From Atherinomorus stipes (lineage: Eukaryota; Chordata; Actinopteri; Atheriniformes; Atherinidae): a stretch of 64,000 bases of DNA. This document shows positions 33,601 to 36,600 of this stretch, one piece after another. A program made the translations under genes and the position numbers. The DNA is taken from the NCBI GenBank assembly GCA_023101725.1, contig JALJCO010013720.1, positions 147,501 through 211,500 of the forward strand, given 5' to 3'. Within the stretch, counting starts at the first letter, position 1; each line of letters starts with the position of its first letter. The notes beneath the pieces are model-generated. The model was not told where the DNA came from. It was given only the letters and a program-made list of their open reading frames with translations, and did no database searches.

Positions 33601-36600
33601 AGGCCACTCCAAAGTCTTCATTTAGTTTTTCTTAAGCCTAGGCTTTCCACTGATCGGATCGGTTTGATCAGATCGGCCGATATTTCACATTTTTTTCAAA
33701 TTTTCTGATCGGTCCTTAACTTTTCATTCACTGATCCGATCAACGACGTCATTGTCATTTTGAATCTGCTCCGGTAAAACTCTCATTTACACCAATTAAA
33801 CTTAGAAAACAAGTAAACAAACAAAGCAGAATAGACATATACTCACTAGTATGTGTTTTATGTCTTCGTGGCGTTTTTGTCGTGAGTTCTGTCACTATGT
33901 GCTGGACAATAAAGTTTTTACAATCCCAAATACGCCACAGGTGAAGGATGGCGACACCGGTTGCAAACATGTCAGCTCTTAGACTGAAAGGACACAGCGT
34001 ATTTCCTGCACTTCCGCAAACAACAATTTACCTTAAACTGTTGCAGCACAAGTGTTTGTCACCGTGTCTCCATCAGAGACGGTAAATAACAGGACTCCAG
34101 ACCACAGAGACCCAGTGTCGAGCGCTTCGGCCGCCACGTGCTCCAGCAGGTATGTATACAAACGCTCCTGACGCTGACGCATGCGTCCACAGCAAATATA
34201 TTCCAGCCCAACTGTAGCGATACCGGACTACTTGAGCTAAAGTAGGTTGTTTGTTCTCGCGTCAAGGTTCTTCTGAGGGAACAGTCACTCGATTAGTTTG
34301 ACTACTAACATGACGTCATCAGATGTGAGCTACAACTTTCTGAAGCAGCATTACTGCCATCATTTGCGCTGTGACTGTAGATAATTTCAGTTATGACAGT
34401 TTAAGTTGGGCTGTTATTTGTGCCACTGGCTCAAATTGTTTTGTTTGTCCTGATTAAACCTGAATGCTCATCAGAGGTTATTGGTGTTTAACCTTTTCAT
34501 CTCAGTTCAGGTCAAAAAATGGAAACAAAAATCCTTTTTATGATTCTCAGTAAACTGTATAAATACAGGTAAACAAGCTATTTAAATAGATATATTTGCT
34601 TCCTCACATGATCGGATTGATGATCGGTGTTTTTAAAACTCTCTGATCGGTGATCGGCCCCAAAAATCCTGATCGTGTAAAGCCTACTTAAAGGTTGAAT
34701 ATGGAACACGGACAGAACAGCGACATCACGTGTGTCTAGGTTGTAGTTGCAACGGCAGAAAAACAACTCCAGCCGCTGGGATGCCAGGCTCACTGCCGAT
34801 ACGCAAGTAACAGTCTGCAGCATGTCCAACAAGTAACGCAGAGGAGTTTATAACCGACAGCTAACGTTAGCCATGTTAGCAAACAAGCTAGCTTACCGAT
34901 CCAGGAGGAAAGTCGCCTTCTCTGTGTTTTACTCTGTGGAAAACGTTTATGTGGGTCCATTTAGTGAAGTCTTCACCTAAATTTACTCCAGGTTTTGCTC
35001 TTCTCAGGTCACTCCTCCTCAGAAACAGATAACAACATCTCCAGGGCTCTGAAGCAGCTGCTTCACTCGTCGTCTCCACGGTTTTTCCCTGCACAGGCCT
35101 GACTATGACCAAAATATTGTGTCCACACAGAGATCGTATTTGGCAACCCGCAATGGCGGCGTGTATTGGCTTATATACGTAAATAAAATGCCATTATCAA
35201 ACCCGTCAAAATTTATTTTATAATTATTTTTAGGCTAAATATAATTTTTCTGGGAAATGTTGTACTTTCATTCTGTACACCCCCAAACGACCTGTGGAGG
35301 TATTATTTTTTTTAAAAATATAGCTTTTAATAAAAATGTTCCATATTCAACCTTTAAGCCATTCAGAGGTGTACTTGCTGGTGTGTTTTGGATCATTGTC
35401 CTGCTCCAGAACCCAAGTGTGCTTCAGCTTGAGGTCACCAACAGATGGCTGGACATTCTCCTTCAGGTTTTTTTGGTAGACAGCAGAATTCATGGTTCCA
35501 TTTACCACAGCAAGTATTCCATGTTCTGAAGCAGCAAAACAGCCCAAGACCATCACACTACCACCACCATATTTTACTGTTGGTATGATGTTCCTTTTCT
35601 GAAATGTCATGTTACTTTTCCGCCAGATGTACAGTAATGGGACATGCACCTTCCAAAAAGTTCAACTTTTGTCTCGTCAGTCCACAGAGTATTTTCCCAA
35701 AAGTCTTGGGGATCATCAAGATGCTTTCTGGCTAAACTGAGACGAGCCTTTATGTTCTTTTTGCTCAGCAGTGGTTTTGGTCTTGAAGCTCTGCCATGCA
35801 GGCCATTTTTGCCCAGTCTCTTTCTTATGGTGGAGTCATGAACACTGACCTTAACTGAGGCAAGTGAGGCCTGCAGTTCTTTGGATGTTGTTCTGGGGTC
35901 TTTTGTGACCTCTTGGATGAGTCGTCGCTGTGCTCTTGGGGTAATTTTGGTCGGCCGACCACTCCTGGGAAGGTTAACCTCTGTTCCATGTTTTCACCAT
36001 TTGTGGATAATGGCTCTCACTGTGGTTCTCTGGAGTCCCAAAGCTTTAGAAATGGCTTTGGAACCTTTTCCAGACTGACAGATCTCAATTACTTTGTTTC
36101 TCATTTTTTTCCTTTTTCTTTGGATCGCAGCATGATATCTAGCTTTTGAGGATCTTTTGGTCTACTTAAATTTGTCAGGCAGGTCCTATTTAAGTGATTT
36201 CTTGATTTGAGAATAGGTGTGGCAGTAATCAGGCCTTGGTGTTGCTAGAGAAATTGCTTTCCAAAGATGTGATAAACAGTTGGTTTATGTTTTAACAGAG
36301 GGGGCAATCACTTTTTTCACACAGGGCCATTGAGGTTTAGATCCCCCCACAAAATAAAAATCTTCACTCAAAAACTGCATTTTCTGTTTACCTGTGTTCT
36401 CTTTGACTGACATATGTTTCAGATCCTCAAACTATTTTTTATAAGTGTGACAAACATGCAAAAAAGTAAGAAATCAGGAAGGGGGCAAACACTTATACAT
36501 ACAACTGTAGGTCTGATTCCTTATAAAGAGAAACATGAAATTAGAGTTCATTGAAATATTTCTGCAGTGATGCTGCTGCTTACTCTTCCAGCCACAGAAA

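What the first reader, a model, noticed from the sequence alone, without database searches (positions are those of the whole stretch)
33631..35360. TTAA element landed inside the target duplication of a hAT, inside a Tc1 transposase
The hAT at 33639-34686 duplicated CTTAAGCC. Its right copy is now C-TTAA, then a 662-bp element, then TTAA-GCC. Removing the element and one TTAA restores CTTAAGCC exactly. Removing the hAT and one CTTAAGCC then rejoins the Tc1 transposase between its second Asp and its Glu. This gives a firm order of events (Tc1, then hAT, then TTAA element) and shows directly that family A duplicates exactly TTAA.
Basis: seen in the sequence. Interest (0 to 1): 0.75.

Follow-up and report, generated by a model that had tools for sequence, protein, structure and literature searches.

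The report
Three transposons nested inside each other
Three kinds of jumping gene landed one inside the other in a vertebrate (probably fish) chromosome, and the small duplications they left behind show the order in which they arrived; this is a clean but ordinary example of a well-known pattern.

Summary
A Tc1 element (33173-36507) was cut by a 1,048-bp non-autonomous hAT element (33639-34686) that duplicated CTTAAGCC; the right copy of that duplication was later split by a 662-bp MITE ("family A", 34692-35353) that duplicated TTAA. Other copies in the same genome bear out each step: 12 of 12 Tc1 copies read show the uninterrupted site, 10 with CTTAAGCC intact; 21 of 26 full-ended hAT copies have a perfect 8-bp duplication; 17 of 18 assessable family-A copies have TTAA on both sides. 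The order Tc1, hAT, A is firm from the bases. Copy divergence agrees that A is youngest but does not order hAT after Tc1 by itself. The rejoined Tc1 frame is not open. Family A fits Kolobok (TTAA, AG...CT ends) better than piggyBac; no autonomous partner was found. Nesting chronology is an established method, so interest is low. Side result: a 19-bp stretch of family A is tandemly repeated (two or more units) next to family-A sequence at 159 places, resembling Xstir inside the Xenopus MITE Xmix.

The parts
33171..33172 (.). TA flank (target duplication) at left end of Tc1 element
   Evidence: TACAGTTG... read
33173..36507 (-). Tc1-like element (coding on - strand), 3,335 bp as it stands, 1,613 bp without the nested inserts
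   Evidence: inverted ends 33185-33237/36442-36494, 94% complementary; length; HTH and Sleeping Beauty matches
33388..33621 (-). Tc1 transposase fragment carrying the catalytic Glu region
   Evidence: 5cr4_A residues 154-230, E 1.4e-19
33631..33638 (.). left copy of the 8-bp hAT target duplication, CTTAAGCC
   Evidence: empty site in Tc1 paralogues
33639..34686 (+). non-autonomous hAT element, 1,048 bp, ends TAGGCTTT, eight GATCGG/CCGATC motifs, all within about 100 bp of the ends
   Evidence: ends agree with where family similarity stops
34687..34691 (.). first five bases of the right hAT target copy (C + TTAA)
34692..35353 (+). family A: 662-bp MITE, probable Kolobok type
   Evidence: 40 copies scored at 97% or more, including itself; TTAA on both sides; ends AG...CT
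34692..34708 (+). left 17-bp terminal inverted repeat of family A
34813..34831 (+). 19-bp segment GTCTGCAGCATGTCCAACA of family A (element position 122), single here, tandemly repeated in other copies
35337..35353 (-). right 17-bp terminal inverted repeat of family A
35354..35360 (.). duplicated TTAA plus GCC: remainder of the right hAT target copy
35350..35661 (-). Tc1 transposase fragment with the second Asp (its far end is read from family A and the TTAA)
   Evidence: 5cr4_A residues 56-149, E 5e-26
35610..35993 (-). Tc1 transposase fragment with HTH_Tnp_Tc3_2 and the first Asp (WTDETKVEL)
   Evidence: PF01498 E 1.1e-23; 5cr4_A residues 3-57
35997..36161 (-). Tc1 transposase N-terminal HTH (Sleeping Beauty HTH)
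   Evidence: PF25787 E 1.3e-11
36508..36509 (.). TA flank at right end of Tc1 element

Best explanation
Three cut-and-paste insertions in series. (1) A Tc1-like element inserted at TA (shown by its ends). (2) A 1,048-bp non-autonomous hAT element, moved by a hAT transposase made elsewhere (inferred), inserted in the Tc1 transposase region and duplicated CTTAAGCC (shown by the left copy, the split right copy and 12 uninterrupted Tc1 paralogues). (3) A 662-bp MITE, most likely moved by a Kolobok-type transposase made elsewhere (inferred), used the TTAA in the right copy of that duplication and doubled it (shown). The order Tc1, hAT, A follows from the bases alone. That A hit the hAT's target copy is taken to be chance (inferred): TTAA is the only requirement seen.
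For: Bases of all junctions. Twelve Tc1 paralogues gapless at the joined site. hAT: of 29 other copies 26 full-ended, 21 with perfect 8-bp duplication, 3 with 7 of 8, 2 with 4-5 of 8 (with other alignment settings L047, not full-ended there, also shows 8 of 8); similarity among family copies begins and ends at or near the same positions. Family A: of 20 other copies 18 assessable, 17 TTAA/TTAA and 1 TCAA/TTAA; 2 cut by N or a contig end; both further window copies TTAA/TTAA. Divergence from the majority of other copies: A 8 of 661 sites, hAT 58 of 1,046, Tc1 27 of 795; differences seen in no other sampled copy: A 4, hAT 23, Tc1 20. Only one locus spans the Tc1/hAT junction and one the hAT/A junction among the 40 best in each search. 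Kolobok: TTAA duplication with 5'-RR...YY-3' ends (PMC9587614 passages). The genome holds Kolobok-like loci: 127 PF20478 (P2RX7_C/KolX) matches, and a transposase-like exon from one of these loci matches 48 places, on about 25 contigs within 2.4-5 kb of a PF20478 match (counted by eye from the lists).
Against: Raw divergence puts the hAT (5.5%; 3.9% without CpG) above its host Tc1 (3.4%; 3.0%), the wrong way round. 35 of the 58 hAT differences are shared with at least one other copy and three other copies are also about 5% from the majority, so much of this is subfamily difference; private differences (2.2% against 2.5%) are compatible with the order but do not demonstrate it. No autonomous element with family A's 17-bp ends was found. 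The three KolX loci read carry no AGGTTGAATATGG. Copies were chosen by similarity to the window copy, which lowers all divergence figures.
Confidence: 0.9

Rival explanations
1. Family A was there first and the hAT inserted beside it afterwards.
For: None found; both events use the same eight bases, so it had to be asked.
Against: Then GCC would lie beyond A and the hAT's left flank could not read CTTAAGCC continuously. Ten of 12 Tc1 paralogues show CTTAAGCC as the native sequence.
Confidence: 0.02
2. The TTAA on both sides belongs to family A's own inverted repeat and is not a target duplication.
For: TTAA is its own reverse complement, so flank and inverted repeat cannot be told apart from filled sites alone; the repeat finder reports the arms here as 22 bp.
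Against: The pre-insertion site is known here (left hAT copy, Tc1 paralogues) and holds one TTAA; after insertion there are two. One copy has TCAA on one side.
Confidence: 0.03
3. Family A is a piggyBac-type MITE instead of a Kolobok-type one.
For: piggyBac also duplicates TTAA (PMC9587614 passage).
Against: The same passage sets Kolobok apart by 5'-RR and YY-3' ends; A begins AG and ends CT. No piggyBac search of the genome was run.
Confidence: 0.2
4. The nest is an assembly artefact joining three repeats.
For: The genome is a 7,656-contig assembly with many copies of each of these repeats.
Against: Random misjoins would not reproduce an 8-bp and a 4-bp duplication to the base.
Confidence: 0.02

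Closest known systems
Sleeping Beauty-type Tc1 elements
   Same: HTH and catalytic pieces match Sleeping Beauty transposase chains 5cr4 and 5unk; TA flanks; 1.6 kb without inserts
   Different: Inverted ends not compared with Sleeping Beauty's; this copy's frame is broken in several places
hAT superfamily, non-autonomous
   Same: 8-bp target duplication in 21 of 26 full-ended copies; short inverted ends TAGGCTTT; clustered motif near the ends
   Different: No transposase recognised: in four ORFs scanned over the hAT only weak Pfam matches below the curated cut-offs; no autonomous partner sought
Kolobok superfamily / T2-MITE of Xenopus (Xmix)
   Same: TTAA target duplication, AGG start, high copy number; an internal segment repeated in tandem, as Xstir in Xmix (passages of PMC6004289)
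   Different: Starts AGGTT, not T2's AGGRR; partner transposase not identified
Nested-transposon chronology (interruption analysis, PMC2517846; TinT, PMC3014933; both seen as search listings with the start of the abstract)
   Same: Relative age read from which element interrupts which
   Different: Those appear from their abstracts to be genome-wide statistics; here a single locus is resolved to the base by target duplications

Membership tests
Kolobok | TTAA target-site duplication | tested here: met
   17 of 18 assessable other copies; pre-insertion site known
Kolobok | 5'-RR ... YY-3' ends | tested here: met
   AG...CT; criterion from PMC9587614 passage
Kolobok | same ends as an element encoding a Kolobok transposase | tested here: inconclusive
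   KolX/transposase-like loci exist; three read in part carry no AGGTTGAATATGG
T2-MITE (Kolobok) | terminal AGGRR motif | tested here: not met
   ends read AGGTT; criterion from PMC6004289 passage; not filed as T2
piggyBac | TTAA target-site duplication | tested here: met
   as for Kolobok
piggyBac | ends unlike Kolobok's 5'-RR...YY-3' | tested here: not met
   A has RR...YY ends; contrast as drawn in PMC9587614 (passage)
hAT | 8-bp target-site duplication | tested here: met
   21 of 26 full-ended copies perfect, 3 with 7 of 8, 2 with 4-5 of 8
hAT | short terminal inverted repeats | tested here: met
   TAGGCTTT, 8 of 8
hAT | hAT transposase (carried by autonomous members only) | tested here: not met
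   no Pfam match reaching a curated cut-off in four ORFs scanned over the element; so not an autonomous hAT, filed as a non-autonomous hAT by ends and duplication only
Tc1/mariner | TA target duplication | tested here: met
   33171-33172 and 36508-36509
Tc1/mariner | paired HTH and DDE domain | tested here: met
   PF25787, PF01498; 5cr4_A

The most novel reading that the evidence does not exclude
Family A is a Kolobok-type MITE that repeatedly seeds minisatellite arrays from one internal 19-bp segment, independently repeating what Xmix/Xstir does in Xenopus. If so, seeding of tandem arrays may be a recurrent property of TTAA MITEs with AGG ends.
Probability: 0.45. Interest if true: 0.45.

Novelty: new member of a known kind. 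Interest (0 to 1): 0.22.

Why it matters
It is a base-perfect case of reading insertion order from target duplications, and it shows unambiguously that this MITE family doubles a single TTAA. It does not change any general idea. The side observation, that a 19-bp segment of the same MITE is repeated (two or more units) directly beside family-A sequence at 159 places, bears on how transposons seed satellite DNA.

Tried and rejected
Autonomous partner of family A by its ends: 51 places in the genome carry TTAA plus the 17-bp end followed by A or G. I looked at all 51 (20 as loci of up to 3 kb, 31 as windows of 121-122 bases). Most match family A behind the end and are mutated or truncated copies. 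L061 and L067 looked like a longer element, but their flanks match on both sides of the end, so they are a duplicated genomic segment (or two haplotypes) holding a truncated A end; L122 begins with the same sequence. L073, L111, L128 and L133 gave no BLAST match to A behind the end and L131 only one of 12 bases; L128 looks like a mutated A by eye, the others remain unexplained.

Partner by protein: PF20478 (KolX) loci were found and three were read (L107, L108, L109); none has AGGTTGAATATGG. An exon of L108 was recognised from memory as Kolobok-transposase-like; Pfam gave nothing and the PDB only one chance-level match. Its repeated neighbourhood with KolX is the only evidence.

Second empty site for family A: the duplicated segment C1541/C758 holds the A copy in both, so it gave none. 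Two hAT copies whose match ran 11 bases into the flank (L141, L142) are not in Tc1; the flank similarity is chance. Orthologue comparison: not possible, no relative held.

Is the coincidence remarkable? Rough estimate: about 1,004 hAT candidates x 2 target copies x 4 of 25 with TTAA x 3,827 A candidates / 8.7 million TTAA (extrapolated from the window) = about 0.14 expected in the genome. That is mildly lucky and chosen after the fact. The candidate numbers are first-look counts, not verified copies.

Full report
What is there. The interval 33631-35360 reads CTTAAGCC | hAT 33639-34686 | C TTAA | family A 34692-35353 | TTAA GCC, and it lies in a Tc1-like element 33173-36507 flanked by TA. The three lengths are 1,048, 662 and 1,613 bp (the last without the inserts; 1,722 bp of inserted sequence = 1,048 + 8 + 662 + 4). 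Family A has a perfect 17-bp inverted repeat.

Step one, Tc1. The - strand carries a Sleeping Beauty-type HTH (PF25787, E 1.3e-11), HTH_Tnp_Tc3_2 (PF01498, E 1.1e-23), and three pieces matching the Sleeping Beauty transposase chain 5cr4 at residues 3-57, 56-149 and 154-230. The frame of this copy is not open even when the inserts are disregarded: a frame change between the first and second pieces, a stop in the N-terminal part, and a stop beside the insertion site. So "rejoins the transposase" is true as alignment only.

Step two, hAT. Tc1 copies elsewhere in the genome give the direct empty site. All 12 that I read, out of 40 listed, align without a gap at the joined site; 10 have CTTAAGCC, one CTTCAGCC, one CTCAAGCC. 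For the hAT family, 29 other copies were read: 26 have both ends, of which 21 show a perfect 8-bp duplication, 3 match at 7 of 8, and 2 at 4-5 of 8. A search with the left junction finds one locus spanning it; the other 39 of the 40 listed start between 11 bases before the first hAT base and that base itself. With the right junction, one locus spans it and the other 39 end between one base before and 17 bases after the last hAT base. The element has eight GATCGG/CCGATC motifs, all within about 100 bp of the ends; none of 2,000 mononucleotide shuffles reached eight. This fits transposase binding sites near the ends (inference). No transposase was recognised: of four ORFs scanned over the hAT, the only Pfam matches are weak and below the curated cut-offs.

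Step three, family A. The genome search scored 40 copies at 97-100% identity including the window's own (3,827 first-look candidates). Of 20 other copies read, 18 have both flanks: 17 TTAA/TTAA, one TCAA/TTAA. The two other window copies, 2486-3150 and 62190-62859, also have TTAA on both sides. Because TTAA is its own reverse complement, filled sites alone cannot separate a duplicated target from a longer inverted repeat. This nest can, since the unfilled sequence is known from the left hAT copy and from Tc1 paralogues and contains a single TTAA.

Order. With A in place first, the GCC of the target would stand to the right of A and CTTAAGCC could not be continuous left of the hAT. So the order is Tc1, hAT, A. 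As an independent check I measured differences from the majority of other copies: A 8 of 661, hAT 58 of 1,046, Tc1 27 of 795; without CpG sites 4 of 609, 37 of 940, 23 of 771. A is the youngest, as expected. The hAT figure exceeds that of its host Tc1, which at face value contradicts the order. But 35 of its 58 differences are shared with other copies (a subfamily); differences seen in no other sampled copy are A 4 (0.6%), hAT 23 (2.2%), Tc1 20 (2.5%). These are compatible with the order but cannot prove hAT after Tc1. Samples differ in size (20, 29, 12 other copies) and were chosen by likeness to the window copy.

What moves family A. TTAA duplication is shared by piggyBac and Kolobok; Kolobok is told apart by 5'-RR...YY-3' ends (PMC9587614, passages), and A has AG...CT. 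The Xenopus T2-MITEs have TTAA and AGGRR (PMC6004289, passages); A has AGGTT, so it is not T2 by that motif. The genome holds 127 matches to PF20478, the P2X7 C-terminal domain, which PMC9587614 (passages) derives from the KolX protein of Kolobok. A transposase-like exon, recognised from memory, recurs at 48 places, on about 25 contigs within 2.4-5 kb of a PF20478 match (my count by eye of the two lists). No autonomous element with A's ends was found. Kolobok is the best reading at about 0.75, not proven.

Side result. In L059 a family-A copy runs into a 19-bp tandem array, 52 units, to the end of the locus; the unit is family A position 122-140. Exact dimers of the unit occur 717+671 times in the genome against 0 for the reversed control. 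Two units running directly into the 13 bases of A that follow the unit occur at 78+81 = 159 places with up to 3 mismatches, control 0; this shows at least two units there, not how long the arrays are. The A sequence before the unit running into two units was found at only 6 places, so the other edge is mostly different or more diverged. Of the 11 contigs in the cut list, nine show an A edge next to an array in the cut list. PMC6004289 (passages) describes the like for Xmix and Xstir. I did not measure array lengths beyond L059. A paper search on MITE-born satellites found 33 papers, of which I saw 8 as listings.

Verdict. Observation exact, interpretation supported with one correction. Nesting as a clock is established (PMC2517846, PMC3014933; search listings with abstract starts). 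Paper searches with terms for this combination gave listings whose titles name neither this locus nor this family; no claim of absence from print is made beyond that.

Noticed in passing
L059:2023-3022 (G000:C298); family A position 122-140, window 34813-34831: A 19-bp segment of family A is expanded to a tandem array of 52 units; 159 places in the genome show two units running straight into family-A sequence. Parallels Xstir in the Xenopus MITE Xmix.
   Followed up: partly
window 2486-3150 (+) and 62190-62859 (-): Two further family-A copies, 94% and 93% identical to the nested one, both flanked by TTAA.
   Followed up: yes
window 33173-36507: The Tc1 transposase reading is broken by a frame change and stops independent of the hAT insertion.
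   Followed up: partly
L061, L067, L122: Three loci share a family-A right end cut off after about 40 bp; L061 and L067 lie in a segment alike for over 5 kb.
   Followed up: partly
L073 (C2951:492038), L111, L131, L133: TTAA plus the exact 17-bp end of family A followed by sequence hardly or not at all like family A: possible ends of a different, perhaps longer, element.
   Followed up: no
L107, L108, L109: Single-exon PF20478 (KolX/P2RX7_C) ORFs of 171-200 aa with a transposase-like exon about 2.6-2.9 kb away, as expected for Kolobok elements.
   Followed up: partly
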